This document shows positions 34,508 through 62,098 of a stretch of 64,000 nt of DNA, piece by piece. Origin of the DNA: Roseibium sp. TrichSKD4 (GTDB taxonomy: Bacteria; Pseudomonadota; Alphaproteobacteria; Rhizobiales; Stappiaceae); contig NZ_GL476314.1 of the NCBI RefSeq assembly GCF_000148725.1, positions 156,165 through 220,164 on the forward strand, in the 5' to 3' direction. Below the pieces are notes generated by a model that saw only the letters and a list, made by a program, of their open reading frames with translations, was not told where the DNA came from and did not search any database. Position 1 is the first letter of the stretch. Each line of letters begins with the position of its first letter. A program made the translations under genes and the position numbers.

Positions 34508-35755
<1,248 letters not shown>

Positions 35756-47068: not shown

Positions 47069-47145
47069 GGGCCTGTAGCTCAACTGGTTAGAGCCGTCCG
47101 CTCATAACGGATTGGTTGGGGGTTCGAGTCCCTCCGGGCCCACCA
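47069..47145 (+). tRNA. tRNA with CAT anticodon (Ile2 or elongator Met)
   Basis: 77 nt including encoded CCA. Acceptor stem GGGCCTG pairs with the 3' strand CGGGCCC (one mismatch or wobble at the seventh pair). D-arm AGCTCAACTGGTTAGAGC, anticodon loop CTCATAA (CAT) and T-arm GGGGGTTCGAGTCCCTC are all present. CAT can be elongator Met or lysidine-modified Ile2; the GGGCC acceptor end leans to Ile2. The integrase gene begins 97 bp downstream, so the 3' end of this tRNA is the probable chromosomal attachment site. Confidence 0.93.
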
Positions 47146-47241
47146 TTCTTTCTTTTTTTCTCTATAATTCAAAAAGATATTGAAATTCATGGGTTTGTTT
47201 GGCCTACTCTACTCAAAATCTCTACTACAAACGGAGGGCGA

Positions 47242-48948
47242 GTGGCCAAGGTACAGGGTCTGGTTCGGCAGGGAACGAAGTATTATTACAGGAGGGCCGT
47301 CCCCCCAAATTTGCACCCCGTTGCAAACAAGAAGGAAGTCTGGATAGCTCTTCAAACCTCGGATTATCATCGGGCGTGTCGATTGGCGCGGGAGGCTGCG
47401 ACGGCAACGGACGTATATTTTGCGGAGTTACGGTCTGGAAAGACGAGAGCGAAGTCAGCTGAGGAAATCTTTAGCCGACCTATCTCCGAACTGGATTTGC
47501 AACTGGCTGCGAAAAGGCATCTTTGGGAACGTGAAAAGCGGGAAAAAACCGCTGCTGGTGATAATGTCGAAGAGACCGTGGAGTACCTGTCGTTGCTTCG
47601 AAGGGCTTATGATGAAGAAGCCCAGTTGATTTCGTCGCTTGAGGAGATCGTCACTACAATTGTCAGAGAACATTTTCCTCAGATAGAGCTAACCACTGCG
47701 GTGGATACGTCCACCGACATTCCCATCACAACCATTGGCGAAAGAAAGCCTGAATGGTGGAAGCTGATAGAGTTGGTTCGCCGAGCTGAAATGGAGCATG
47801 CACAAAGGCGTTTGAACCGGGCTCAGGGAGGGCATGGGGATGCTGCAATCGATCCTCTTTTTGCCGATATTGCATCCTTCGCAGCGCAGCCGCAATTGGA
47901 TCGGGATGAGCATGTATCCATTGGCACGCTCATAGATCGGTTTCTAAAAGACCCACGACGCAGCGACCTCACCGAAAGTGCAGACAAGAAATATATCGTC
48001 ACTTTTCGTGTTCTTAAGGAAGTGGTGGGGGCTGATTTTCCGGTAAAGGATGTTACACGTAGACACTGTGCTGAAGTGCAAGAGCTGATTGCTGGGTTAC
48101 CCAAGAATATGGTGAAGTTGAAGCCGTACGATGGGCTCGATCTTCGCGCCTGTATCGCCCTACGTGCCAAAAGGAATGACCCTGCATTGTCTGCTGGGAG
48201 CGTAAAGGTCTATACACAGACGCTCTCCGCTTTCTTTAACTACGCGATCGATAGAGGTGTGCTCGAGCACAATCCAGCTTCTCGCTTGACGTTGTCTGGC
48301 GGTCGGTCCGAAAGAGTGCGTCGGCCCTACAAAATTGAGCACATCAACCAAATTTTAGCGGGGCTGAGTGACTGGTCATCAGAAAAGACAATCAGTTGGC
48401 GATACTGGGTGCCATTGATAGCTATCTTTTCCGGAATGCGGATGGGGGAAATCGTCTCTCTGCACGTGTCGGAGGTGGTCGACAAAGGCGCTCTCGGGAC
48501 GGCTTTTCAGTTGACCCATTCGGCAGATCGTCCGCTTAAAAACAAGGGGGCGGAGCGTACTGTACCCGTTCACCCGGCTCTTATTGATCTCGGCCTATTG
48601 GGCTTTATCGACCAAAGGGTGAAGGAGAAATCGCTACTCCTTTTTCCCGACCTCAATGGCAATAGCCACGAGGAGCGGGCCCATGCTTTCCAGCGTCGAT
48701 ATGAGTACTTCCAGAAAAGGAAGTTGGGTATTCGTGATCAGGGTGTCTCGTTTCACTCTTTCCGCCATAATTTCCGCGATGCGCTACGTGAGTGCGGTGT
48801 GCCAATTGACACCACAAGGGCATTGGGCGGATGGAGCAGAGGTGGTGGAATTGAGTTTCACTATGGCGAGGGTACGAGTTTTGCCACTCTGGCGAAATGG
48901 ATGTCGAAGGTGACCTATCCCGGACTAAACCTTGTGATCCTTCTTTGA
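47242..48948 (+). CDS. Tyrosine recombinase / island integrase
   Basis: About 568 residues. The N-terminus (VAKVQGLVRQGTKYYYRRAV, RACRLAREAATATDVYFAEL) is the DUF6538-like module of phage-type integrases. The core DNA-binding domain lies about 230-360. The catalytic residues are visible as Arg in IFSGMRMGEIVSLHV, His-x-x-Arg in FHSFRHNFRDALRE, and Tyr in IEFHYGEGTSFATLA. GTG 47242 is chosen because GGAGG ends 4 nt before it; the open frame extends into the tRNA. It points away from the tRNA, as is usual for tRNA-integrated islands. Confidence 0.9.
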   Translation: MAKVQGLVRQGTKYYYRRAVPPNLHPVANKKEVWIALQTSDYHRACRLAREAATATDVYFAELRSGKTRAKSAEEIFSRPISELDLQLAAKRHLWEREKREKTAAGDNVEETVEYLSLLRRAYDEEAQLISSLEEIVTTIVREHFPQIELTTAVDTSTDIPITTIGERKPEWWKLIELVRRAEMEHAQRRLNRAQGGHGDAAIDPLFADIASFAAQPQLDRDEHVSIGTLIDRFLKDPRRSDLTESADKKYIVTFRVLKEVVGADFPVKDVTRRHCAEVQELIAGLPKNMVKLKPYDGLDLRACIALRAKRNDPALSAGSVKVYTQTLSAFFNYAIDRGVLEHNPASRLTLSGGRSERVRRPYKIEHINQILAGLSDWSSEKTISWRYWVPLIAIFSGMRMGEIVSLHVSEVVDKGALGTAFQLTHSADRPLKNKGAERTVPVHPALIDLGLLGFIDQRVKEKSLLLFPDLNGNSHEERAHAFQRRYEYFQKRKLGIRDQGVSFHSFRHNFRDALRECGVPIDTTRALGGWSRGGGIEFHYGEGTSFATLAKWMSKVTYPGLNLVILL

Positions 48949-51383
48949 CGACTGAGTTCCGGGAATGTCGTAGCATTCTTGTGACTAGGATCATTCGATC
49001 TCGCAGTGGTTTGTTGTTCAGTTTGCACCCGGTTTCAAACTGCAATTTGCAGCATAGTACTCTTCTGATTTTAATAGGCGCGCTTGTAACTGCCCCGTTG
49101 ACAGCTGGTGCAAGTGGTTGGGTCGCAGGCCTGATCGTTCTAGGAGAGGCCGTCGTCTTTGCACTGCCTGACTTTGTCGAAGCAGCAAACGCGGATAGCG
49201 AAGAAGAACGTAAGCAGCATTTCAAAGCAGGGTTGATCAATTTGGTGCTTGGGTTGGCGATCCCGCTCGCGGCCAAGGGCGTGAGCCTTATTGCCAAAGA
49301 GGGCCTCGCGGCAGCCAAAGGCCTAGGCAGGAATATTCTCAGCAAATTGGAGGAACCGCTCACACAGGAGAGCCCATTCTTGATGAATACTCTTCAGGAC
49401 CTTGCTGAAAGTGAAGAGGTCTCTGTTCTCGGTGAAGTCAGGAACGCGTCCAAGGTGCCGGAAAGGTTCAAGGTTTCAGCTGAAGAACTTCCGGGAAAGG
49501 CCGACTACAAGTTCCACGAGCAGGGATATTTTCGCGGTCTTTATGTCAACTCGGAAGAGAATTTGGCAATCAGCTTGGACGGAGGAGAAACATTCATTCC
49601 AGTCTCGAGTGGCAGCGGAACCAACGAGTTCAAACTGGTCGGTAGATCAACCACATTCGTGCGACGTGCGGACGGATCATTTGACTTCAAATTCGTTTCC
49701 AGACCGCCGGGCGGAACCCCGTTCGACCCAGAGCAAGCCGCGTCTCGTTCAACTCAGAAACCAGGTGTTCGGCCCCCAGAAGAAATCGAACTTGAACCCG
49801 TTCCAACGACATCTGCGGCGACCTTGTCGATGTACAAATTGAACGGCCTGTTAGATCAGGTTGAAAACATATCGGAAGACGCGCGAAAAGCTGTCGTCGA
49901 AGAGTTTTCTCAAATGCCAGCAGAGAGGCAAGAGCTTTTCCTTTCGCGACTGGAAAAAGAGATTGGGAATGGCAACGGGAAGCGCTTCTTGGATCGTTTT
50001 ACAGGAACGAAACCGGTGCCCGAGGCTACCGAGTCTGTTTCTCCGTTTGAATCCAAGCCAATCAGCAGAGCGCTGCGTAAGGAACTTGACAGGCCCTGGT
50101 TGAAGGGACGGTTAAAATCTGAAGAATTCAAGGAAGTCGAAGGCGCGGTCAAAAACAGTTCCCCTGACGATCGAATGCTCTTCCAGAAAGCGCTGCAGCG
50201 AACCCGCAAAAACTCGAAGGCGGACTTTGCATTGGCATCGGCGCGTGTGCCTCAGGCCGACAGGAACGCATTCGCGGAAGCATGGCTTAGTAAAAGACCC
50301 ACAGCGCTATTCGAAAATCTCAAGGGATACAACGAAGATGGTAGTATAAAGTTTAAATTGCCGCAAGGTATGTCGGATGAGTTGAAAGAGTTCCTTGAAA
50401 CCACAGCTAAAGAAAACATGTCCGAAAAGGAAGTGAAGCAGCTTGTTGACGAATGGTTGACAAAGAGATGGCCTGATCATTTTCCTGCCGATGGTAAGGC
50501 CGCCGGTTTTACGAGAATTTTCACGAGTGCTGCGGGCAGGCAATATCTTGTGATTGGGCTGATTACCGGCGGAATTCCTACACTCGGCTTTATTGCATAC
50601 CTGGCAGCGACATCGGATTCAAGTAGTCCAACAGCAAGTGGCGACGGCACCAAAAATACGGCGTCTCCAAACGGCCCCACAGGTGCCAACAACAATGACC
50701 CAACGGCGCCCTATGTCACCGAATTGCCGGACCTAAGCCGTGGACCAAACTGGGAACACCACAGCACAGAAACTTCAAGGTACTATGGTCCAGCGGAACC
50801 TAGGCCTGACAAGAATGGGGTCGTGAGAGGCTCAAACGGCAAAATAATTGGCACGTACGACCAAAACGGAAACCTAATTAAAGCTGGTTCAACCACCGAG
50901 ATCATCAGACCTGATGGCAGCTATATCGGAACATATGTAAAAACAAAGATCTTCAAAGAAGACGACACGACAACACCTGAAGCAAACGAAGCCGGAAAGC
51001 AATTTTGGATCATTAAAGACAAAGCTGGAAACATTGTCGACACAGACGGCAATGTGATAGCAAAATACGTGGGCAAAAAAGATCATCCCACAGTGAAATT
51101 CGAAGATGGACGGCCATTTACTCAAGAGGTCTACGTCACAACTGACGGACAACAGAACCCTTCCGGCAATGGGCCACTAGAGGTTTATGTTTATTGGGAT
51201 GATTTGTATGGCTGGGAAGGCTACGCCACTCCCTACCGCACCAATATCAATCGCTCTCCCTACTGGCGCACGTTTACGGTCAATGGAGAAGCGAGAACAT
51301 ACTATTACCCAAAGGAAGGGAAGCCCTATCTTGTAGAGGAAGAGGGTTCCACCTCCAGAGCGGACATCGGTACTATAACTTAA
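48897..51383 (+). CDS. Large orphan protein with hydrophobic hairpin, effector-like
   Basis: An 828-residue protein I do not recognise. Residues 55-90 and 112-135 are hydrophobic (TLLILIGALVTAPLTAG, INLVLGLAIPLAAKGVSLIA), and another helix lies near 548-570. A small domain follows the first pair (KFHEQGYFRGLYVNSEENLA, TFIPVSSG). The middle is helical and charged. The C-terminal 200 residues have repeated NGKIIGTYDQNGN, DGSYIGTYV and AGNIVDTDGNVIAKYV turns. Two buried helices followed by such modules recall C-terminal parts of large dermonecrotic-toxin-like effectors; this is weak inference. The frame overlaps the integrase by 52 bp and has no good start site, so the N-terminus may be a deletion junction. 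Confidence 0.6.
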   Translation: MDVEGDLSRTKPCDPSLTTEFRECRSILVTRIIRSRSGLLFSLHPVSNCNLQHSTLLILIGALVTAPLTAGASGWVAGLIVLGEAVVFALPDFVEAANADSEEERKQHFKAGLINLVLGLAIPLAAKGVSLIAKEGLAAAKGLGRNILSKLEEPLTQESPFLMNTLQDLAESEEVSVLGEVRNASKVPERFKVSAEELPGKADYKFHEQGYFRGLYVNSEENLAISLDGGETFIPVSSGSGTNEFKLVGRSTTFVRRADGSFDFKFVSRPPGGTPFDPEQAASRSTQKPGVRPPEEIELEPVPTTSAATLSMYKLNGLLDQVENISEDARKAVVEEFSQMPAERQELFLSRLEKEIGNGNGKRFLDRFTGTKPVPEATESVSPFESKPISRALRKELDRPWLKGRLKSEEFKEVEGAVKNSSPDDRMLFQKALQRTRKNSKADFALASARVPQADRNAFAEAWLSKRPTALFENLKGYNEDGSIKFKLPQGMSDELKEFLETTAKENMSEKEVKQLVDEWLTKRWPDHFPADGKAAGFTRIFTSAAGRQYLVIGLITGGIPTLGFIAYLAATSDSSSPTASGDGTKNTASPNGPTGANNNDPTAPYVTELPDLSRGPNWEHHSTETSRYYGPAEPRPDKNGVVRGSNGKIIGTYDQNGNLIKAGSTTEIIRPDGSYIGTYVKTKIFKEDDTTTPEANEAGKQFWIIKDKAGNIVDTDGNVIAKYVGKKDHPTVKFEDGRPFTQEVYVTTDGQQNPSGNGPLEVYVYWDDLYGWEGYATPYRTNINRSPYWRTFTVNGEARTYYYPKEGKPYLVEEEGSTSRADIGTIT

Positions 51384-51682: not shown

Positions 51683-51905
51683 TTACGGGGCAAAGTCAAT
51701 GTCCGATGGAGGCACGTTTGCTGCCAAGCGGTAAGTTCGCGACAGAGCCCAGAAATCTATGCCGCCCTGAAGTTTTCCAACTTCCTCCATGAAACAACGG
51801 CGATTGCGCAATTTTGTGAGCGGATCGCGCGTCGCGTAGAAACGCAGTTCCTGCTGGCCAGAGAGCATCTTCTGTGCGGAGCGCATCTTGGCATAGAGTT
51901 CTTCG
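51683..51905 (-). pseudogene. Fragment of a diguanylate cyclase (GGDEF) gene
   Basis: Reading leftward from the IS6 edge, the frame gives ATGPEELYAKMRSAQKMLSG, then RFYATRDPLTKLRNRRCFME, the start of a GGDEF domain (compare the consensus DxLTxLxNRRxF). After about EEVGKLQGG the similarity stops, before the GGDEF motif itself. The 5' part is removed by the IS6 element at 51906. The remainder (51384-51682) holds only the stem-loop and no gene. Confidence 0.6.
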
Positions 51906-52797
51906 GGCCCTGTCGCATAGTTTTCTTGTTAACCCCGGCTTGAGAATTCGGTGATGAAAAGGCGTTCCGATTTGTTGGAGTGCGGGTTTATGATTCTGAA
52001 TGCCATTACCGAAAAGCTGAAGCGCCAATCAAAGGACGATTTCAAAGGGCGGCATTTCGAGGCATGGCTCATTGTTCAGGCCGTTGCCTGGTACTTGCGC
52101 TATCCGCTGAGCTATCGAGATTTGGAGGAGATGTTCCAGGAGCGTGGCTTCGAAGTAGATCACAGCACGATCAACCGATGGGTTCTTGCTTACGCGCCGA
52201 TGATCGAGAAACGGCTACGCCAGTTTCGCAGACCCCATTGCGGTTCAGTTCGCATTGACGAAACCTACGTCAAGATCCGCGGCAAGTGGCGCTACCTGTA
52301 CCGGGCCATTGACAAATGCGGCAATCCTGTCGACTTTCTGCTAACGGCAAAGCGCGACCTTGATGCGGCCAAACGATTTTTCCGCAAGATGCTGAAGGAC
52401 GAGCCCCTGCTATCGCCGGGGAAGATCGGTACCGACGGTGCAAATACCTTCCCGTCAACGATCAAAACGACCGTCGATGACCGGCTCCTGCGTCCAGATC
52501 CAGTACATTATGTCACCAAACATCTACAGCAAAGGATCGAAAGCGACCATTTCAGAGTGAAGAAGAACATGCCAAAGACCGGCGGTTTTCAATCCTTCAA
52601 AACGGCGCGACGAACGATTGCCGGTTTCGAGGCTATGCTCTGGCTGAAGAAGGGTTTCGGCTTCACTGGCGATTGGACTGTCAACGAACAGAATGGTTTG
52701 CTCGCGCAGCTCTTCGGACTTCAAAAGGTTAACAAAGAATGAAAATACCGCCGATCGCAGGGTAGCCTTATCCTGCTGAAAGGTTTGCAACACGGCC
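51906..52797 (+). mobile_element. IS6-family insertion sequence, copy 1
   Basis: The element runs from GGCCCTGTCGCATAG on the left to TTTGCAACACGGCC on the right, with imperfect IS6-type inverted ends. It differs from copy 2 (59016-59906) by one base in the transposase and by one extra C at the left tip. No 8-bp target duplication is present around it, so its present junctions were made by recombination. Confidence 0.85.
51951..52742 (+). CDS. IS6-family transposase (copy 1)
   Basis: A 263-residue DDE transposase. The HTH region is LRYPLSYRDLEEMFQERGFE with VDHSTINRWVLAYAP. The catalytic acids are in SVRIDETYVKIRGKW, GKIGTDGANTFPS and the Glu of HLQQRIESDHFRVKK. It is complete and identical to copy 2 except for Gly instead of Asp near residue 253 (NEQNGLLAQ). 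IS6 elements move replicatively and form cointegrates. Confidence 0.95.
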   Translation: MMKRRSDLLECGFMILNAITEKLKRQSKDDFKGRHFEAWLIVQAVAWYLRYPLSYRDLEEMFQERGFEVDHSTINRWVLAYAPMIEKRLRQFRRPHCGSVRIDETYVKIRGKWRYLYRAIDKCGNPVDFLLTAKRDLDAAKRFFRKMLKDEPLLSPGKIGTDGANTFPSTIKTTVDDRLLRPDPVHYVTKHLQQRIESDHFRVKKNMPKTGGFQSFKTARRTIAGFEAMLWLKKGFGFTGDWTVNEQNGLLAQLFGLQKVNKE

Positions 52798-52807
52798 ACA
52801 TGCGGTC

Positions 52808-54088
52808 TTACGTTTTTTCGGGTGTCCAGCTCAGAATTTCATATACTCGCTCGATTGGTTCAATGATCCAAGAGATCAGCGGACGTTGGTCAATGGAGAT
52901 GAAACCTGTAACCTCCAATCCATCACGTAATTTGGGCAAAATTTCCCGATCAAAGGTCGCGTCCCTGTTGAATGCAGCCTCAATTAGGAAAGAAGGTTTG
53001 TCCTCCGCGCTCTGAGACGGCAAATTTAAGTTTGGTAAACCTGTTTCAGAAATATTTGTGATGACAGCGGGAAAGGTACCCCATTCCGACACATCAAAAG
53101 TAACGAGTTCGATCCGTACCGCATGACCAACCGCTACATCTCTAAGGTTTCGACTTTGCACAACGAATTCTGTAAAAAATCCACCTTGTTCTCGATGATC
53201 TTGGGAAATCTGAATAAGGGGAGCCCCATTACTAAATACTGATGACCCCTTTTGTGTTCTTATATGTGTAACAAAACCATTGAACGGCGCTAAAAGGGTA
53301 ATACTATCTCGGTTTTCAAGATCCAGTAATTCCAAACTCAAAAGATCTATTTCGGCCATTACCTTTGTAATATCATTTTGAAGTGCTGAGGTGGTTTCCT
53401 GATTTCTCTTTTTCTGTTCCTCAGTGTTTCTTTGCAGGTGAAGAAGTCCCAATTTTTCTCGTATATGCCTTTGCTCTGTATCATTTATTTTTAAGAGACA
53501 AGTCTCTCTCTGATCTTCTGAAACAACACCACGATCGTGTAATGTTTGCAAGCGATCGCATTTCTGCTTGAGTAATTTCTCTTCTCCAGATATTGTTCTT
53601 AAAAGATGCTTATGAGTAGATTCTTCATTCGCTAACTGCCGTGTAGTTACGGCATGAGTCTCTTGTTCTAGTAGCAACTTATCTTCGAAGTTTGTTTTTT
53701 GGTTCTCTAGCTGCAAGATTCTCTTTTTGATACGCTCGCGCTCAATCTCGTTGGCATCACCTTTTTCTTCCCGTACAAGATCTGTGCCGATAGCGATTAG
53801 GGGTTGATTCTTCTTTACTGACTCGTCCCTCGACACCATCACCTCTAGTATACGTCCAGCCCGAGGAGCGGCAATATTTGCGATTAAACCCTGTGCTCTG
53901 ACTTGCCCCTTTACTTTCCGAATTTCAGGCAATTTTACGGATATGGCCAACGAAATCGCAGACAAGAACGTAGTCGATAATACGAACACAATAATTTTAG
54001 TTGAAAAGTGTGTGGATGGTAGACCGCGGATAACCCAAGCTGCAACGTTGTTTGTTTTAGCGTGTCGCAGTTGACCAGACGAAGGCAT
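52808..54088 (-). CDS. HlyD-type membrane fusion protein of the peptide exporter
   Basis: A 426-residue periplasmic adaptor. One N-terminal membrane helix (IIVFVLSTTFLSAISLAISV, about residues 30-50) is followed by the first half of a biotinyl-lipoyl-like domain (GLIANIAAPRAGRILEVMVS). A long coiled coil covers about 110-265 (RKRILQLENQKTNFEDKLLL-type sequence). The second lipoyl half is ITLLAPFNGFVTHIRTQKG, then a beta-barrel region. It would link the ABC exporter to an outer-membrane channel, which is not encoded here. It is the last gene of the leftward operon, 6 bp after the acyltransferase, and its stop lies 10 bp from the IS6 end. Confidence 0.85.
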   Translation of the reverse strand: MPSSGQLRHAKTNNVAAWVIRGLPSTHFSTKIIVFVLSTTFLSAISLAISVKLPEIRKVKGQVRAQGLIANIAAPRAGRILEVMVSRDESVKKNQPLIAIGTDLVREEKGDANEIERERIKKRILQLENQKTNFEDKLLLEQETHAVTTRQLANEESTHKHLLRTISGEEKLLKQKCDRLQTLHDRGVVSEDQRETCLLKINDTEQRHIREKLGLLHLQRNTEEQKKRNQETTSALQNDITKVMAEIDLLSLELLDLENRDSITLLAPFNGFVTHIRTQKGSSVFSNGAPLIQISQDHREQGGFFTEFVVQSRNLRDVAVGHAVRIELVTFDVSEWGTFPAVITNISETGLPNLNLPSQSAEDKPSFLIEAAFNRDATFDREILPKLRDGLEVTGFISIDQRPLISWIIEPIERVYEILSWTPEKT

Positions 54089-54094
54089 TTGAGA

Positions 54095-55009
54095 TTAATT
54101 CCTGTCTAGGTTCGAGGGTTGAAAGTAAGCCATAAACATAAACCAGTTACGCCACTCAAGCGGGTGTGCTGATATCTCACGACCAAGTATATAAGAAAGT
54201 TCAGTCATTCTTACCTGTTCGTCCGCCGAATATTCAACTAGCAATGTAAACTCAGGTGCGGACCTGTCTAACACGTTTCCGCGCGCATGACCCACCATCA
54301 TCCGGGCTTTAAGAATAGCACGTAATCGCAAAACACCGGCGCTCAAACGCGCAGGCCGACCCAATAGCCGACAATCCTGCGTTGCACCAAAACGACCAGG
54401 AAGATCAGAGAAACAAATAACAACTCCTGGCATTTTTCGACACATTTTTACGCATGACTTTAAAGCGCCTGCTTTTTCTAAAGACCAAAGATGTGCTTCG
54501 CGCGTTTCCGCGAAAGTGTTCCATAATCGTGCTTCACGCCAACTACGTGAACCAGTTGCAGCAATACAATGAATAGGTATTTCCCGTGGAATCAGTTTGT
54601 CAATGGCCCACATTAGATTAAACATGCTTGAGAAATGAAAGGCTGCGAAAACAATATTTTGTTCAATTTTACATAGCTTTTCTATTTCATTTCCATTCAC
54701 ATTAACTAATCTGATGCGGCCAGCATAGTACTCTGTCTCCTTTGGGCTAGCTTTTGCTAACAATGTTCTGCAAGCAACCATCAACGGTCTGCGATATATC
54801 CCGTGCCATTTGCTCTGCTTGATGATCGGGTATACTAAGAGCTGCTTCGAAATGCTTTTCATCAAAGGCGAAACTCCTAGATATGTCTTTGAAAGAAAAT
54901 CCGCCACCCAAGACACGAGCCTATAATACTTTGCTGGTAGGATTCTCAATAGACAGCTAAAAGCGGTAATGTGCAAGTATATAATTTGTGAAGAACCAAT
55001 AAAATGCAT
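54095..55009 (-). CDS. LpxL-like lysophospholipid-acyltransferase-fold protein
   Basis: A 304-residue protein with the outline of lipid A lauroyl/myristoyl transferases: a hydrophobic N-terminus (LHITAFSCLLRILPAKYYRL), then VFAAFHFSSMFNLMWAID at the HX4(D/E) position, GVVICFSDLPGRFG at the second conserved region, LSAGVLRLRAILKARMMVG, and the C-terminal ISAHPLEWRNWFMF corresponding to HPEQWxWxHRR. The acidic partner of the catalytic His is replaced by Phe, so the mechanism is altered or the enzyme is inactive. It sits inside a peptide-export operon (gaps of 2 and 6 bp), which suggests that it acylates the peptide or alters the envelope for immunity. Confidence 0.65.
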   Translation of the reverse strand: MHFIGSSQIIYLHITAFSCLLRILPAKYYRLVSWVADFLSKTYLGVSPLMKSISKQLLVYPIIKQSKWHGIYRRPLMVACRTLLAKASPKETEYYAGRIRLVNVNGNEIEKLCKIEQNIVFAAFHFSSMFNLMWAIDKLIPREIPIHCIAATGSRSWREARLWNTFAETREAHLWSLEKAGALKSCVKMCRKMPGVVICFSDLPGRFGATQDCRLLGRPARLSAGVLRLRAILKARMMVGHARGNVLDRSAPEFTLLVEYSADEQVRMTELSYILGREISAHPLEWRNWFMFMAYFQPSNLDRN

Positions 55010-55011
55010 AT

Positions 55012-56232
55012 CTATGCCGCCTTGACTACTTTAAGAGCCCCATTATCCAGCTCAAATATTTGATCGGCTGAGTCCCGAATATTTTTTTGGTGGGACGCGA
55101 CCAGCTTTATGCACGGAAGCTTCTTGATGTCGTCCCAAATATCGTTTGCGGTATCAACATCAAGATTTGCCGTAAACTCATCCAAATACAAAATGTCAGG
55201 AGCACGGTAAATAGCTCGTGCAATCAGTAATCTTTGAATCTCACCTGTAGACAAAATATGTCGCGCTATAGAAAACTCTGTCTTATCTCCATGATCCAAC
55301 TCCTTGATTCTGTTGGAGATCCTCGCAATATCGATGGCTTTGGCATAGCGTTGGTCATCAACAAATCCATGAAAAGATGTGATGTTTTCTTGGATTGTAC
55401 CGGAAAAAAGGGTATCTTTTGGTGTTACAGTCGCAACGTGGTTTCGAATTAATGGAATTGATTTTTCCTCTACATCTTTTCCATTTACTTGAATGCTACC
55501 TGCGGCTGTTGGAATAATCCCAACTAAAGCGCTAAGAAGCGTACTTTTTCCGGCGCCTGTTTTGCCGATAAACACTGCAGTTTGACCCTGTTTAATTGTG
55601 AGTGTGACATTTTCCAAAATCACATCAAGACTGCCTAATGGCGAAATGGCCAAATCGCGGCATGACAGAGACAGGAAAGGGGTTGGCAAAACATTTTTAC
55701 TGTGATCAATATCGGGCTTAGTTTGAACAATGTCCGCCATACGATCAATATGGACCAGAGCAATGTTACGCTCGAGCAACGTGTTGAAGATGCGAATAAA
55801 ATTATCGCCAAAGATATTTTTATATTGGATGTAGGCATAGGCCGCACCCACCGTAGCCTCGCCATTGATGATCCTGTAACCTGCCCAAGCGACCACAAGC
55901 AACTGCTCTGCGTGAAGTACCGCTTGCGACAAAGTATCAAAGGTGATGCGGTAGTTTTCTTTTTTGCGGCGTGCCTTTAAGCTCTGATTCAAGGAGCGCG
56001 CCCAAAGATTGCTTAGCGGGTTCACTACGTCAAAAACCTTGACCGAGAATATTCCTTCAACAGCTTGCAACATCCGACCATCCGCATCGGCTTTGCATGA
56101 AACTTCCTCAGCAGTGTAGCGACGTAATGGACCATAAAGGAGTATTCTGAGAAAAGAGAAAAGTACTAACCCAGAGAAGGAAATAAGAGCAAGAATAACA
56201 TCATAGTATATCATCATCACAATAGAAAACAA
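55012..56232 (-). CDS. Peptide exporter, C-terminal half: membrane and ATPase domains
   Basis: A 406-residue fragment that begins at a TTG and lacks the N-terminal part, encoded in another frame upstream. Membrane helices occupy about residues 1-35 and 105-125. The ATPase has Walker A GKTGAGKST (223-231), signature LSTGE (327-331), Walker B ILYLDE (347-352) and the switch His in VASHQKN. The Q-loop glutamine is replaced by Pro (TVTPKDTLFSG), an unusual change. Together with the upstream half it makes a bacteriocin-type PCAT exporter of normal length (about 694 residues). Confidence 0.8.
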   Translation of the reverse strand: MFSIVMMIYYDVILALISFSGLVLFSFLRILLYGPLRRYTAEEVSCKADADGRMLQAVEGIFSVKVFDVVNPLSNLWARSLNQSLKARRKKENYRITFDTLSQAVLHAEQLLVVAWAGYRIINGEATVGAAYAYIQYKNIFGDNFIRIFNTLLERNIALVHIDRMADIVQTKPDIDHSKNVLPTPFLSLSCRDLAISPLGSLDVILENVTLTIKQGQTAVFIGKTGAGKSTLLSALVGIIPTAAGSIQVNGKDVEEKSIPLIRNHVATVTPKDTLFSGTIQENITSFHGFVDDQRYAKAIDIARISNRIKELDHGDKTEFSIARHILSTGEIQRLLIARAIYRAPDILYLDEFTANLDVDTANDIWDDIKKLPCIKLVASHQKNIRDSADQIFELDNGALKVVKAA

Positions 56233-57094
56233 CAGCCAAATAAAGAGAGGAGAGCGCTACAAAATGATCGGTAAGAAACTCTGAAATCTTTTCCGCCGAG
56301 CCAATCCGTGCCAAAATATCAGCGGGAAACCTATTAGTGAAGTACAGGAAGGGTAACTTGAAAAGATGAGACGCGTTCGCATTTGACAATTTGCCAATCA
56401 GCGACACAGTCAAGATGTTCCTCAGCCAGTCCGTAAGAAATCGATAAACAGCCTCAAAGACATATATGACGCCAAATATAATTGCGAATGATATTAGAAG
56501 TTCAGTTGAGCTGTTTCGGATGGCCTCATCGACTACCAATTTGACATAGCTGGGTGCGGCCAAGAACAAAATCTGCAGAAATATACCACATAATAGTGCT
56601 GTAGAAAAATGTGTATTCACGCCAGCTAGAGCACGTACAAATTGCGAAATGCTAAGGAAGTCTAAAGCGCTATGCATGTCAGCATAGTTTTTGGTAGGTG
56701 TCACTTCTATTGCATATCCTGAGATATACTCTCTAGCCTCCTCTAGTCGAATCCTCCTTCTGCCCAAGGCAGGATCAACAATGGTTAGTGTTTGCCGAGA
56801 GGCATATTCAAGAATCACAAAATGATTATCACCCCAATGCAAAATGCATGGCGTCTGAAGTGCACATATTTCGTTTTCTTCAAAAGCTAATACACGGGGC
56901 ACCAACCCGTAGGTGTCCGCAATCCGGCTAAGCTCAAAAAGTGATAATCCAGATTCCAGACGCACGGGATATTTAGTACGCAGGGTACGTAAGCTAACTT
57001 CACGCTTAAAGTGACCAGTGAGCATTGAAATGCAAGCAAGGCCACACTCGGTAACTTGGTCTTGAAAAACTGGTCGTACCACTCGTTGCCTCAA
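56201..57094 (-). CDS. Peptide exporter, N-terminal half: C39 peptidase and first helices
   Basis: A 297-residue fragment. Residues 1-130 are a C39 peptidase that removes double-glycine leaders: Gln11 (oxyanion hole), Cys17 in QVTECGLAC, His91 in GDNHFVIL and Asp107 in IVDPALG are all present. Membrane helices follow (FSTALLCGIFLQILFLAAPS, and ISFAIIFGVIYVFEAVYRF). The frame ends early (FYCDDDIL), and the continuation is in the +1 frame, joined near 56,243. The start may be TTG 57094 or GTG 57082, which has GAGG 6 nt upstream. It lies 66 bp after the precursor gene, behind an attenuator. Confidence 0.85.
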   Translation of the reverse strand: MRQRVVRPVFQDQVTECGLACISMLTGHFKREVSLRTLRTKYPVRLESGLSLFELSRIADTYGLVPRVLAFEENEICALQTPCILHWGDNHFVILEYASRQTLTIVDPALGRRRIRLEEAREYISGYAIEVTPTKNYADMHSALDFLSISQFVRALAGVNTHFSTALLCGIFLQILFLAAPSYVKLVVDEAIRNSSTELLISFAIIFGVIYVFEAVYRFLTDWLRNILTVSLIGKLSNANASHLFKLPFLYFTNRFPADILARIGSAEKISEFLTDHFVALSSLYLAVVFYCDDDIL

Positions 57095-57109
57095 TAATAT
57101 TACAAAGAA

Positions 57110-57134
57110 CCGGAGCTGCGATTAGCAGCTCCGG
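57110..57134 (-). terminator. Attenuator hairpin between precursor and exporter
   Basis: CCGGAGCTGC (57110-57119) and GCAGCTCCGG (57125-57134) form a perfect 10-bp stem with a 5-nt loop. Leftward it is followed by TTCTTTGTAATATT, a moderate U-run. Such partial terminators commonly give more precursor than exporter transcript. Confidence 0.7.
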
Positions 57135-57160
57135 CAGCAAAAAAATATTTTATGAAAGGA

Positions 57161-57277
57161 TCAGCTAGCACCAAAGACGCCTGCGACCGCAGCACCAAGA
57201 CTAAATAGAGCGCCTACGAGGCCCCAATTTGAACCACCTTTGATGCTTTTTTGCTCAGCTTCTGAAACGATACGCAA
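57161..57277 (-). CDS. Double-glycine precursor peptide, class II microcin-like
   Basis: A 38-residue precursor. Residues 1-15 are a classic leader ending in Gly-Gly (RIVSEAEQKSIKGG after the start). The core is 23 residues, starting SNWGLVGALF and ending GVFGAS, rich in Gly, Ala and Val with GxxxG-like spacing, without Lys, Arg, Asp, Glu or Cys. TTG 57277 is the start: AGGGAGGG (57292-57285) lies 7 nt upstream, and the leader then has the usual length. The frame extends to a TTG at 57421, but that would give an atypical 63-residue leader and overlaps TTGACA, a perfect -35 sequence. An 8-bp hairpin (57369-57387) lies in the upstream region. The C39 exporter downstream is the expected processing partner. 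Confidence 0.75.
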   Translation of the reverse strand: MRIVSEAEQKSIKGGSNWGLVGALFSLGAAVAGVFGAS

Positions 57278-57699: not shown

Positions 57700-58723
57700 G
57701 ATTCAGATTCGAAGTGCAACACCTGCTATTTGAGCAGGTGGCATGGGAATACAATACAGACATCTTGATTTGGCAGAACGGTGCCGGATTTGTGCGATGA
57801 GAAGCCTTGGACACAGCCTTGATGATATCGCGGCTATGCTTGGTCGGTCGAAGTCTACGATTAGCCGTGAGCTTAGGCGCAATAGCGGGGATAAAGGCTA
57901 CAAGCCGGATCAGGCTGACCGGATGGCCTGGGCTCGTAAACTTCGCGGTCACTTGCTTGAGCGCCACAGCCAGCTTCGAGGCTGCGTCGTGGCCCGTCTT
58001 GGCATGGGATGGACCCCGGAACAGATCACTGGCCGGCTGCGGCTTGAAGGATCACAGCACACGCTCAGCCCGGAGTCCATTTACCGCTACGTCTACAGTG
58101 CACATGGACGCAAGGACAAGCTTCACCGGTATCTGGCCCAAAGGAAGGCCAAACGGGGGTATCGCCGCCGGAAAGGCCGCACATCGCGAACAGATGAGGC
58201 AAAACAGCCGATCTGGCTGCGACCGACAAAGGCTCATACCCGTGCCGAGGTTGGTCATTGGGAGGGCGATTGCATGCATTTTCGCAAACAGAGCGATATT
58301 CTCCTAACCCTTCAGGACCGCAAGACCAGGTACTGGATAATGAATAAACTTCCGCGCAAAGACGCTGAGACAACCGCGAACATGGTGCGAGACCGTTTCG
58401 CTGAAATGCCTAAAAAGGCCCGCAAAACAATTACTCTTGATAACGGAAGCGAGTTTGCCCAGCATCGAAAGCTGGAACAAAAGACAGGAGTGCGAGCCTT
58501 CTTCTGCGAACCGCACTCGCCTTGGCAACGCGGGTCAATCGAAAACGGAAATGGCCGTGTTCGGCGGGACCTGCCCAGAAAAACTGACCTTCAAAACTGG
58601 ACGGACGAGGACATTGAAAACCTCACATTCATCTTCAATTCAACACCGCGAAAATGTCTTGGTTACAGAACTCCAATCGAGGCATTCGCAAAGGAAATAG
58701 GTGTTGCACTTAAATTGTGAATC
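57700..58723 (+). mobile_element. IS30-family insertion sequence
   Basis: A 1024-bp element with 25-bp inverted ends (57700-57724 and 58699-58723) matching at 21 of 25 positions, both beginning GATTCA and ending AAGTGCAACACCT. The flanks (CTTA on the left, CACC on the right) show no duplication, so one side was changed after insertion. Confidence 0.88.
57743..58720 (+). CDS. IS30-family transposase
   Basis: A 325-residue transposase. The N-terminal HTH is YRHLDLAERCRICAMRSLGH with IAAMLGRSKSTISRELRRN. The catalytic acids are in VGHWEGDCMHFR, TITLDNGSEFAQH and WQRGSIENGNGRVRRDLPR. The C-terminal part FNSTPRKCLGYRTPIEAF is the usual IS30 ending. It appears complete; its stop lies inside the right inverted repeat. 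Confidence 0.94.
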   Translation: MGIQYRHLDLAERCRICAMRSLGHSLDDIAAMLGRSKSTISRELRRNSGDKGYKPDQADRMAWARKLRGHLLERHSQLRGCVVARLGMGWTPEQITGRLRLEGSQHTLSPESIYRYVYSAHGRKDKLHRYLAQRKAKRGYRRRKGRTSRTDEAKQPIWLRPTKAHTRAEVGHWEGDCMHFRKQSDILLTLQDRKTRYWIMNKLPRKDAETTANMVRDRFAEMPKKARKTITLDNGSEFAQHRKLEQKTGVRAFFCEPHSPWQRGSIENGNGRVRRDLPRKTDLQNWTDEDIENLTFIFNSTPRKCLGYRTPIEAFAKEIGVALKL

Positions 58724-59015: not shown

Positions 59016-59906
59016 GGCCTGTCGCATAGTTTTCTTGTTAACCCCGGCTTGAGAATTCGGTGATGAAAAGGCGTTCCGATTTGTTGGAGTGCGGGTTTAT
59101 GATTCTGAATGCCATTACCGAAAAGCTGAAGCGCCAATCAAAGGACGATTTCAAAGGGCGGCATTTCGAGGCATGGCTCATTGTTCAGGCCGTTGCCTGG
59201 TACTTGCGCTATCCGCTGAGCTATCGAGATTTGGAGGAGATGTTCCAGGAGCGTGGCTTCGAAGTAGATCACAGCACGATCAACCGATGGGTTCTTGCTT
59301 ACGCGCCGATGATCGAGAAACGGCTACGCCAGTTTCGCAGACCCCATTGCGGTTCAGTTCGCATTGACGAAACCTACGTCAAGATCCGCGGCAAGTGGCG
59401 CTACCTGTACCGGGCCATTGACAAATGCGGCAATCCTGTCGACTTTCTGCTAACGGCAAAGCGCGACCTTGATGCGGCCAAACGATTTTTCCGCAAGATG
59501 CTGAAGGACGAGCCCCTGCTATCGCCGGGGAAGATCGGTACCGACGGTGCAAATACCTTCCCGTCAACGATCAAAACGACCGTCGATGACCGGCTCCTGC
59601 GTCCAGATCCAGTACATTATGTCACCAAACATCTACAGCAAAGGATCGAAAGCGACCATTTCAGAGTGAAGAAGAACATGCCAAAGACCGGCGGTTTTCA
59701 ATCCTTCAAAACGGCGCGACGAACGATTGCCGGTTTCGAGGCTATGCTCTGGCTGAAGAAGGGTTTCGGCTTCACTGGCGATTGGACTGTCAACGAACAG
59801 AATGATTTGCTCGCGCAGCTCTTCGGACTTCAAAAGGTTAACAAAGAATGAAAATACCGCCGATCGCAGGGTAGCCTTATCCTGCTGAAAGGTTTGCAAC
59901 ACGGCC
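59016..59906 (+). mobile_element. IS6-family insertion sequence, copy 2
   Basis: An 891-bp element with ends GGCCTGTCGCATAG and TTTGCAACACGGCC, in the same orientation as copy 1. It interrupts the IS3-type fragment on the left and the histidine kinase gene on the right. The 8 bp outside its ends do not match (AACCGGAG and ACCTTATC), so it marks a rearrangement junction rather than a simple insertion. Confidence 0.88.
59060..59851 (+). CDS. IS6-family transposase (copy 2)
   Basis: 263 residues, identical to copy 1 except Asp instead of Gly near residue 253 (NEQNDLLAQ). All DDE motifs are present (RIDETYVKIRGKW, IGTDGANTFPS, RIESDHFRVKK), so it is probably functional. Confidence 0.95.
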   Translation: MMKRRSDLLECGFMILNAITEKLKRQSKDDFKGRHFEAWLIVQAVAWYLRYPLSYRDLEEMFQERGFEVDHSTINRWVLAYAPMIEKRLRQFRRPHCGSVRIDETYVKIRGKWRYLYRAIDKCGNPVDFLLTAKRDLDAAKRFFRKMLKDEPLLSPGKIGTDGANTFPSTIKTTVDDRLLRPDPVHYVTKHLQQRIESDHFRVKKNMPKTGGFQSFKTARRTIAGFEAMLWLKKGFGFTGDWTVNEQNDLLAQLFGLQKVNKE

Positions 59907-62098
59907 ACCTTATCTATGCTTCCAAACGACTGGATGTGGTGCAGTCGAGAATTCGACAAATGATCGCAAGACTTGGGACATTTAGGGAGCAGGTTGTTGG
60001 AGAGTTGGAGAATTCTCAATCTGATCCCGAATCCCGCCTTGCATGGTGGACGCTGCAAAGCATGACAGCTGACAGTTTCAATGCAGCCTATGCAGAGAAT
60101 CTGATTGGTGTAGGTGAGGAGCAACGACAATATCAAAGGCAAAGGCGCCAACTGGCATCACTTCCATTGAGCCAGAAACAAACTGAGTTTCTTCTTAAAC
60201 TTGAAGGAGTGATTTCGGGAGAGACCGGCATTTTCGAACTCCGACGGCAAGAGCTTGCTGTCAATCTCGAAGCACAAAATGCGCTCTTTCGCATCAGACG
60301 CGATGCGAACCTCGTCAATGAATTGGCTATTGGGTATGCGTCTAGAGCAGAAGCCTTTCTTGCCAAGGAAAGATCAAGCTCTTCGTCCACCATTCAATTT
60401 ATCAAACTCACCCTTGCAGTTGTCAGCTTGGTGAGCTTTGCTTTAGCATTATCAGCCGCATTGTTCGTCTCGCGCTATGTTGCCTACAATATTGGACGAG
60501 TAGCTGATGCAATGGTGCGCTTGGCCAATGGAGACAGGGCATCCGCTCTGCCGCGTAAAACAGGCAATGACGATGAAATTGGCGATCTGAACAGATCGTT
60601 TCGTAGTTTCAGAGCGAACGCCCTACGGCTTGATCGGTCACACAAGCAGCTCAATCAACGCAACGCGCTATTTGAGAAGGTTTTCGCCAATATTGCCTAT
60701 GGAATCGCGATTACCGATGCGAGCGGCAAGGTGACAGCTTCGAATCCAGCCTTTGCGGATATTTTGGAAATCGATCCTGCCAAGCCGTTCCGGGAGCCGC
60801 TTGCCAAATGGTTTCATGAAGGAAAGTTTGCCAAGTCTGCTGCAGAAGCAAATGTAAAGTCCAATCTGCGCGGTCAGCTAGAACTAGTCGCTGAAGATGG
60901 TCAAATTTTGGAGTTGAGAGCAAGCCAACTTCCGGATGATGGTCGTGTCTGGTTGGTGGCGGATGTCACCGAAAGCCATACCTTGTCAGCTCGTCTGGCG
61001 CAGATCGATCGCATTGAGGCGTTGGGCAAAGTTGCAGGTGACACAGCTCATGATTTTGCAAACATCCTTTCAACGATCCGCACTCATGCTCATCTTCTCA
61101 CAAGCGGGGCGACTTGTTTACAGAAGAACAATATCTCTGCAATTGAGAACGCCGTTGAGTTCGGCAGCTCTTTAACAGAACGTCTGCTGGCATTCGCGAA
61201 AAAGCAAAATCTCGCACCCGAGGTGGTTGAGCTCAACAGTTTACTCGAAGGGATGATCGAGCTTGCAGAAATTGGACTCAAGGAGAGTGTGGTGCTTAAT
61301 GCCGTGTACGCTCAAGAACCCCTTCATGTGATTGCTGATCCAGGTCAGATGGAATCCACACTTCTCAATCTCATCTTGAACGCAAATAATGCGATTGAGA
61401 ACAAAGGTGAGATCCAAATGCAATTGTTGTCGCATGACGGCGAAGCGACCATCATCATCAAGGACAATGGCATTGGTATGCCCGCTAATGTGCGAACAAA
61501 AGCCATCGAACCTTTCTTCTCCACAAGGGCTGCGGAGGGTGGATCCGGACTTGGGCTTTCAATCGTTTACGGGTTCGTCAAACAATCAGGCGGAAATCTT
61601 ACAATCGAGAGCGAAGAGGGTAAAGGCACAGCAATTTCCATTTCCATGCCTCTGGCAAAATTAGGTGAGCTGGAGACCGAAAACCTACCAACCAAAACAG
61701 CTCTTGTGATTGATGATGACCAACAAATGCGACAAATCGTTGAAACGATCCTTTGTGGCATGAACTACAAGTCGACCTTGTGCAGCAATGCCAATGACGC
61801 GCTAAAGCACCTGGAGACCGGTAAATTCCATCTAGTTGTCAGTGATTTTGATCTGGGATCAGAGATTACCGGCCGTGATATTTTGGAGACCTCAGCCAAG
61901 AAATTGCCATATGCGATGCGCATTCTTATCTCAGGCAAGTCATCATTGAGCGACGACTATGATGGACCCAACACAATGGTTCAGAAACCTGTCACAGCAA
62001 AGAAGTTGAAACTCATCCTGCAACAAAATGACGCCTTTTCATCACCGAATTCTCAAGCCGGGGTTAACAAGAAAACTTTGCGACAGGCCCCAATTTGA
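59894..62098 (+). pseudogene. Hybrid sensor histidine kinase truncated at both ends by IS6 sequence
   Basis: The open frame starts at a TTG inside the right end of IS6 copy 2 and ends inside an inverted IS6 remnant (last 22 residues from DAFSSPNSQAGVNKK onward). Between them are the end of a helical sensor domain, a membrane helix (LTLAVVSLVSFALALSAALF), HAMP, a PAS region (YGIAITDASGKVTASNPAFA), the phosphoacceptor region VAGDTAHDFANILSTI, an ATPase domain (LILNANNAIENKGE, IIIKDNGIGMP, GGSGLGLSIVYGF) and a receiver domain (ALVIDDDQQM, VVSDFDLG, MVQKPVTAKKL). The N-terminal membrane anchor is lost. The core could still be catalytic if expressed. Confidence 0.8.
62031..62089 (-). mobile_element. 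59-bp remnant of an IS6 left end, inverted
   Basis: Reversed, this stretch equals the first 59 bp of IS6 copies 1 and 2 except for one base (GTCGCAAAG here, GTCGCATAG there). With copy 2 it brackets the kinase fragment in opposite orientation. It ends abruptly at 62031, so the rest of the element was deleted. Confidence 0.88.

What the first reader, a model, noticed from the sequence alone, without database searches (positions are those of the whole stretch)
52808..57277. Class II microcin-like export cassette carrying an LpxL-like acyltransferase
Five pieces in one leftward unit: a 38-residue double-glycine peptide, an attenuator, a C39 exporter, an LpxL-fold acyltransferase and an HlyD adaptor, with gaps of 2 and 6 bp between the last three genes. 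C39 exporters with an HlyD partner are standard for class II microcins, but an LpxL-type acyltransferase inside such an operon is not a usual member that I know. The known fatty-acylated peptides with C39 export (selidamides) use GNAT-type enzymes. The core peptide has no Lys or Arg, so acylation would have to fall on the new N-terminal amine, Ser or Asn. Alternatively the enzyme changes lipid A and gives immunity, since no immunity gene is visible.
Basis: partly seen in the sequence, partly recalled or inferred. Interest (0 to 1): 0.93.

Follow-up and report, generated by a model that had tools for sequence, protein, structure and literature searches.

The report
Peptide export cassette with acyltransferase relative
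A small bacterial gene cassette that should make and export a short bacteriocin-like peptide also carries a relative of the enzymes that attach fatty acids to lipid A; the same odd pairing recurs in other bacteria, sometimes beside its own fatty-acid-making genes, so these peptides may be exported with a fatty tail, although the exporter gene in this copy is split.

Summary
The cassette is real: a double-glycine peptide (57161-57277), an attenuator-like hairpin, a C39 exporter, an LpxL/LpxM-fold protein (54095-55009) and an HlyD adaptor. It lies between two near-identical IS6 copies.

Best reading: a divergent acyltransferase lineage that acylates exported double-glycine peptides from acyl-ACP, a counterpart to GNAT lipidation. 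Lipid A modification as immunity is less likely. The acyl acceptor is not shown. My searches found no description in print.

The parts
57161..57277 (-). 38-aa double-glycine precursor peptide (leader MRIVSEAEQKSIKGG, core SNWGLVGALFSLGAAVAGVFGAS), TTG start
57109..57135 (-). attenuator/terminator-like hairpin between peptide and exporter, weak T run
56201..57094 (-). exporter, first piece: C39 peptidase (Cys17, His86 or 91, Asp107 in VDP present by eye) and first part of the ABC membrane domain
55012..56232 (-). exporter, second piece in another frame: rest of membrane domain and ATPase (Walker A, signature, Walker B present by eye)
54095..55009 (-). LpxL/LpxM-fold acyltransferase-like protein, 304 aa; His125 and Asp202 kept, acidic residue of HX4D/E absent
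   Evidence: fold through homologues
52808..54088 (-). HlyD-family adaptor, 426 aa, aligns over nearly its whole length (19-423) to the Burkholderia homologue at 21% identity
51909..52799 (+). IS6-family copy, approximate ends, left boundary of the cassette (ends a few bp beyond the HlyD stop)
57700..58723 (+). IS30-family element upstream of the peptide gene, approximate ends by its inverted repeats
59018..59908 (+). second IS6-family copy, direct orientation, 1 mismatch to the first, approximate ends

Best explanation
This is a probably horizontally acquired, class-II-microcin-like export cassette of a lineage in which a C39 exporter is paired with a divergent LpxL/LpxM-fold acyltransferase. 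The most likely mechanism: the acyltransferase, at the cytoplasmic face of the inner membrane, uses its conserved His-Asp pair to move an acyl chain from acyl-ACP (host or cluster-encoded) onto the double-glycine peptide; the C39 domain removes the leader and the exporter-HlyD pair, with a host TolC, exports the acyl-peptide. Shown: gene content, recurrence, fold of a homologue, residue pattern, co-location with ketoacyl synthase and ACP in related clusters. Inferred: acyl transfer itself, peptide as acceptor, location, the acceptor residue (here N-terminal amine or Ser). In this copy the exporter frame is split, so it may no longer work.
Against: No acylated product is known. No ketoacyl synthase or ACP was detected in the Burkholderiales and Salmonella salamae loci or in the window's cassette; ACP-like hits occur in 2 of 30 control loci and a ketoacyl synthase in one C39 region without the partner (L115). 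Mature peptides share no residue, by eye, that would mark an acceptor. The acid of HX4D/E, critical in LpxL and LpxM, is gone (5 of 11 have an acid one residue earlier). Four of the six members from C39 regions were first recruited on weak scores. An Enterobacter cassette of the same order has at this place a 249-aa protein without established homology. The window exporter is split. Identity of the window protein to the others is 13-27%.
Confidence: 0.5

Rival explanations
1. This copy is a decaying passenger: the exporter is split, the cassette sits in a nest of insertion sequences and no relative was found in the nearest sampled family, so it has no function here whatever the family does. 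(Not exclusive with the best explanation, which is about the family.)
For: Frame change near 56201-56232; IS6 pair and IS30 around it; 0 of 87 genomes of the nearest sampled family match the narrow profile. Exporters are also split in L177, L199 and L205.
Against: The other reading frames, C39 residues and ATPase motifs are intact, and the frame change lies by a short T run, where a sequencing error is possible; no reads were available.
Confidence: 0.45
2. The protein is an immunity device: it acylates lipid A or another membrane lipid and so shields the producer from its own membrane-active peptide.
For: LpxM/PatA fold, PF03279 similarity in 6 of 11 members, no other immunity gene recognised in the cassette.
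Against: HX4D/E acid absent in 11 of 11, complete motif in 14 of 15 comparison LpxL/LpxM-type proteins; E137A in LpxL costs 3000-fold (PMC6286764, passage). Ketoacyl synthase and ACP in several clusters are hard to explain by immunity.
Confidence: 0.17
3. The protein is a non-catalytic LpxL-fold accessory that uses its hydrophobic groove to hold the hydrophobic peptide or to assist the exporter.
For: Acid of the catalytic motif lost; Enterobacter cassettes (L082, L216) have in the same place a 249-aa protein of unknown family without the His motif.
Against: His and block-3 Asp are invariant in 11 of 11, which an inert protein would not need; ketoacyl synthase and ACP partners. Homology of the 249-aa protein is not established (hhalign E 0.05 over 21 columns).
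Confidence: 0.18

Closest known systems
Class II microcin secretion systems (PMC9746304, passages; colicin V / MccH47 as examples recalled)
   Same: Double-glycine precursor, C39 peptidase-containing ABC exporter, HlyD-type membrane fusion protein
   Different: LpxL-fold acyltransferase as operon member; no immunity gene recognised; no TolC gene seen in the cassette; exporter split
GNAT-lipidated RiPPs: selidamides, nostolysamides, microvionin, goadvionins (PMC13060382, passages seen)
   Same: Proposed fatty acylation of a ribosomal peptide; the nostolysamide cluster is predicted to use a C39 exporter
   Different: Acyltransferase is LpxL/PatA-fold, not GNAT; no lanthionine synthetase seen in the cassette; several related clusters bring their own ketoacyl synthase and ACP
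Lipid A secondary acyltransferases LpxL/LpxM (PF03279) and PatA
   Different: HX4D/E acid absent in 11 of 11; window protein below Pfam detection; genes lie beside C39 exporters
Siderophore microcins with MceI/MceJ (a reference title seen in PMC10233263; acyltransferase-like nature of MceI recalled)
   Same: Exported microcin with a tailoring enzyme
   Different: MceIJ links a nonribosomal moiety to the C terminus (from that title); no LpxL fold is recalled for it

Membership tests
Class II microcin system (five components, PMC9746304, introduction passage) | precursor with double-glycine leader | tested here: met
   57161-57277, only pattern match with Shine-Dalgarno-like sequence in the window
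Class II microcin system (five components, PMC9746304, introduction passage) | C39 peptidase-containing ABC transporter | tested here: inconclusive
   All domains and motifs present but in two frames
Class II microcin system (five components, PMC9746304, introduction passage) | membrane fusion protein | tested here: met
   HlyD, 52808-54088
Class II microcin system (five components, PMC9746304, introduction passage) | cognate immunity protein | tested here: inconclusive
   None recognised between the IS elements; immunity proteins are small and diverse (recalled)
Class II microcin system (five components, PMC9746304, introduction passage) | TolC | tested here: inconclusive
   No TolC gene among the ORFs of the cassette; a host TolC is possible, whole genome not held. 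The Burkholderia locus has one beside the cassette
Class II microcin system (five components, PMC9746304, introduction passage) | antibacterial activity of the peptide | not testable with these tools
   needs experiment
Lipid A acyltransferase family (PF03279, LpxL/LpxM) | fold | tested here: met
Lipid A acyltransferase family (PF03279, LpxL/LpxM) | Pfam gathering score (22.3 bits) | tested here: not met
   Window protein no hit. Relatives differ: L096, L084, L171 31-32 bits (met), Burkholderia 18.5 and 12.9, L109 16.5, L176 13.1, none for L106, L105, L103, L173, L175
Lipid A acyltransferase family (PF03279, LpxL/LpxM) | HX4D/E catalytic motif | tested here: not met
   His kept, acid absent in 11 of 11 C39-linked proteins; complete motif in 14 of 15 comparison proteins, the fifteenth lacks the His
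GNAT-lipidated RiPP (selidamide type) | GNAT-fold acyltransferase | tested here: not met
   LpxM/PatA fold in a homologue; no GNAT domain among the cassette's proteins
GNAT-lipidated RiPP (selidamide type) | acylated side chain or N terminus of the peptide | not testable with these tools
   needs mass spectrometry
NHLP bacteriocin exporters (TIGR03796) | curated score | tested here: inconclusive
   142 and 157 bits for the two pieces against 853.3; scores of split pieces are not comparable with a whole-protein cut-off

The most novel reading that the evidence does not exclude
A second, GNAT-independent route to lipidated ribosomal peptides exists across Pseudomonadota: LpxM/PatA-fold transferases with a His-Asp dyad and no HX4D/E acid, bound to one lineage of C39 exporters, some with their own ketoacyl synthase, ACP and ketoreductase (also on conjugative E. 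coli and Salmonella plasmids), making hybrid ribosomal-peptide/fatty-acid products.
Probability: 0.4. Interest if true: 0.9.

Novelty: new variant of a known kind. Interest (0 to 1): 0.76.

Why it matters
If the acyltransferase acylates the exported peptide, class II microcin-like peptides would include a lipidated branch that peptide-only genome mining misses, because the enzyme is often below Pfam detection and its relatives are annotated 'ABC transporter' or 'hypothetical protein'. It would add a fold to peptide lipidation chemistry and give a test case for how LpxL-type enzymes change acceptor, since one shared change (absence of the HX4D/E acid) marks all 11 members compared.

Tried and rejected
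Looked for the cassette in the host's own genome: none held. Viral contigs: 29 stretches matched the patterns, none a relative. The narrow Burkholderia/window profile A2 found only G001 itself in 398 genomes and nothing in 87 genomes of the nearest sampled family. In one search A2 missed the seven other strong members that A4 found in the same genomes, so these negatives are weak; A4 was not run on that family. The genome-collection scan used two short peptide patterns: of 108 stretches 18 were relatives, all Burkholderia or Paraburkholderia; it would miss the other lineages, which came from C39 loci instead.

Circularity: of the six members from C39 regions only L096 (E 1e-8) and, with the LpxL profile, L084 (E 9e-8) scored well at first; L106, L109, L105 and L103 had E between 0.06 and 7.6 with either profile and were taken up because they were 300-320-aa ORFs beside the exporter with the motif. 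Other support for them: L106 has E. coli relatives at 40% whose protein L171 passes Pfam's cut-off; L105 matches the E. coli proteins at E 1e-5; L109 matches PF03279 at E 0.005; L103 rests on its likeness to L105 in the alignment. L103, L105, L173, L106 and L175 have no PF03279 hit. One search gave 31 of 398 genomes at E up to 0.001; 23 of these are weak (19-41 bits). I fetched two of the weak ones (L200, L201): no C39 exporter.

Considered that the Enterobacter 249-aa protein in the same operon place (L082, L216) is a dead member of the family: hhalign E 0.05 over 21 columns, no Pfam hit; not claimed. Considered the exporter frame change as programmed frameshifting: no evidence. Considered a conserved acceptor residue in the mature peptides: none by eye in the sets. 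Double-glycine peptides were found in 13 of 22 acyltransferase loci scanned; none by these patterns in L103, L105, L173, L174, L172, L177, L203, L204, L205. For L171 the only plausible hit is about 7 kb beyond the last gene of the cluster (L178), so its link is uncertain. An Arg column matching LpxL Arg169 could not be aligned with confidence and is not used. The ketoacyl synthase in L115 (a C39 region without the partner) is a counter-example: 1 of 93 regions; L115 was not among the 30 controls, which I chose for long contigs. Two of those 30 have an ACP-like hit (L223 E 3e-6, L244 E 1e-3).

Literature: all 10 searches used. Judged by listed titles, starts of abstracts and term counts, none is about an LpxL-type enzyme with a C39 exporter; I opened passages (not whole texts) of seven papers. 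PMC8277102, which holds LpxL once, uses it for lipid A regulation (first 300,000 characters held). Only open-licence PMC papers are held, so absence in print is not proven. Searches served only LpxL/PatA residues.
Full report
WHAT IS THERE. On the - strand between 57277 and 52808 lie a 38-codon peptide gene, a strong hairpin, a C39 exporter, a 304-aa protein and an HlyD adaptor. The peptide has a class-II-bacteriocin-type leader and a 23-aa hydrophobic, glycine-rich core without Lys or Arg. The leader pattern finds two ORFs in 64 kb, only this one with a Shine-Dalgarno-like sequence. The spacings of 2 and 6 bp are right. C39 residues and ATPase motifs are present in the pieces. Whether the frame change is real or a sequencing error beside a short T run cannot be told.

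SETTING. Two IS6-family copies in direct orientation with one mismatch (about 51909-52799 and 59018-59908) enclose the cassette together with an IS30-family element (about 57700-58723). Further left are a tRNA-Met and an ORF next to it that looks like an integrase by eye (no family search run). None of 87 genomes of that genome's family gave a hit with the narrow profile. This fits horizontal gain but, given the weak profile, does not prove it.

RECURRENCE. A genome-collection scan gave 18 loci, all Burkholderia or Paraburkholderia; the four Burkholderiales loci scanned with the strict pattern each carry two double-glycine peptide genes before the exporter. To look further I took C39 (PF03412) matches in 398 Pseudomonadota genomes (143 genomes with a match, list of places cut by the tool), fetched 100 regions (one an extension of another; up to 18 kb, some cut short by contig ends) and searched them with profiles. 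Of 99 regions, 93 hold a full exporter in one frame and 6, in six genomes, have a relative of the window protein beside it, besides the Paraburkholderia locus already known. Four of the six were first seen only as weak scores and accepted for size, place and motif; the other support for them is given under Tried and rejected. A profile of 11 such proteins then gave 8 strong hits in the 398 genomes (262-416 bits; the ninth has 41 bits). Seven are its own members; the eighth, G377, is independent and a C39 exporter ORF begins 8 bp after it. Plasmid searches with three of the proteins gave 18 distinct records. I inspected 10 of them (7 Enterobacterales, plus Caballeronia, Rhizobium and Salmonella salamae): all 10 have a C39 exporter within 1.4 kb, two of them in split frames. 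Two weak profile hits that I also fetched (L200, L201) have none. In a tree of 109 exporters the 20 with the partner fall, together with one other (L082), on one side of a single split (support 0.77, moderate); 2 label changes against at least 15 in 1000 shuffles. Several of the tips are close relatives, so the shuffle overstates independence.

CLUSTER-MADE ACYL CHAINS. Six inspected E. coli, Salmonella and Chimaeribacter plasmids carry acyltransferase, C39 exporter and a MacA-like adaptor, and at least parts of MacB and TolC; DsbA is annotated in 4 of 6. A ketoacyl synthase follows in 5 of 6 and an ACP in 4 of 6 (the stretches fetched for Chimaeribacter and for Salmonella L205 end before those places), with a 261-aa protein of unknown family and a ketoreductase in the E. 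coli unit L171/L178. Serratia pE41 has similar genes in another order. Rhizobium sp. SSA_523 has ketoacyl synthase, ACP and a class-III aminotransferase beside acyltransferase-HlyD-C39. With extended flanks a ketoacyl synthase is present in 5 of 8 unnamed-genome loci with the partner (L096, L084, L106, L109, L199; not L103, L105 or the Paraburkholderia locus), about 5-7 kb away in the four found by extension; and in 0 of 30 control C39 loci scanned over about 36 kb each. The flanks scanned for the 8 loci were no longer than those of the controls. ACP-like hits occur in 2 of the 30 controls. Within the first 12-kb regions alone the counts are 1 of 6 against 1 of 93. The five positives are two lineages, not five independent events. 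No ketoacyl synthase or ACP was detected in the fetched Burkholderia and Salmonella salamae loci or in L173, and the window's cassette contains none.

HOW IT MAY WORK. The 11 aligned proteins share His125, Asp202, Gly225 and Trp286 (window numbering). Of 15 LpxL/LpxM-type proteins from eight genomes, 14 have the complete HX4E motif (the fifteenth has Asp but no His); in the 11 C39-linked proteins that position is Phe, Met, Ala, Pro, Val, Tyr or Thr, though 5 of 11 have an acid one residue earlier. In PatA the His works with Glu200 in block 3, and the authors suggest the same for HtrB and MsbB; in A. baumannii LpxM two dyads, His122/Asp192 and Arg159/Glu127, are proposed; in E. coli LpxL the changes H132A, E137A, R169A and D200A cost about 1000-, 3000-, 170- and 15-fold (passages of PMC4792965, and PMC6286764). 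The C39-linked proteins thus keep what corresponds to the His-Asp dyad and lack the second acid. This fits an acyltransferase with another acceptor and fits lipid A modification badly. With the ketoacyl synthase and ACP partners the simplest reading is transfer of an acyl chain from ACP to the exported peptide, in the cytoplasm, before or during C39 cleavage. The acceptor residue is open: in the window core the N-terminal amine and Ser residues offer themselves (inference).

KNOWN OR NEW. Class II microcin systems are described as precursor, immunity protein, C39 exporter, membrane fusion protein and TolC (PMC9746304, introduction passage); an acyltransferase is not among them. The lipidated ribosomal peptides in the passages seen use GNAT enzymes (PMC13060382). 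My ten literature searches listed no paper about an LpxL-type enzyme with a C39 exporter (calls and limits under Tried and rejected). I therefore call it a new variant of a known kind; the window copy itself may be a dead member.

Noticed in passing
L171, L172, L203 (E. coli), L204 (Salmonella) plasmids: Plasmids typed as conjugative carry acyltransferase, C39 exporter, MacAB-TolC, ketoacyl synthase, ACP and ketoreductase in one unit; the acyltransferase is annotated 'ABC transporter' or 'hypothetical protein'.
   Followed up: partly
L082:5494-10064 and L216:1937-6507: Enterobacter-type cassette with peptide, C39 exporter, 249-aa protein of unknown family and HlyD in the window's order.
   Followed up: partly
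L177:8778-10989, L199:6877-9006, L205:9861-11932: The exporter of these acyltransferase-linked cassettes is split into two ORFs, as in the window.
   Followed up: no
L176:3605-3931: Two double-glycine peptides with hydrophobic glycine-rich cores, similar in character to the window's, on a Salmonella salamae plasmid with C39 and acyltransferase-like genes and an HlyD-like ORF by eye.
   Followed up: no
window 47069-48948: tRNA-Met followed by an ORF that looks like an integrase by eye, a possible entry point of a genomic island.
   Followed up: no
window 48897-51383: 828-aa ORF of unknown function with only a weak DUF6027 match.
   Followed up: no
window 51683-51886: Fragment that looks like part of a diguanylate cyclase (motif recalled, not searched), lying just left of the left IS6 copy.
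   Followed up: no
window 59894-62098: Sensor kinase-response regulator whose predicted start lies in the end of the right IS6 copy, so possibly cut at its N terminus.
   Followed up: no
window 34508-35755: 415-aa protein with a long Pro-Glu repeat, TonB-like by eye.
   Followed up: no
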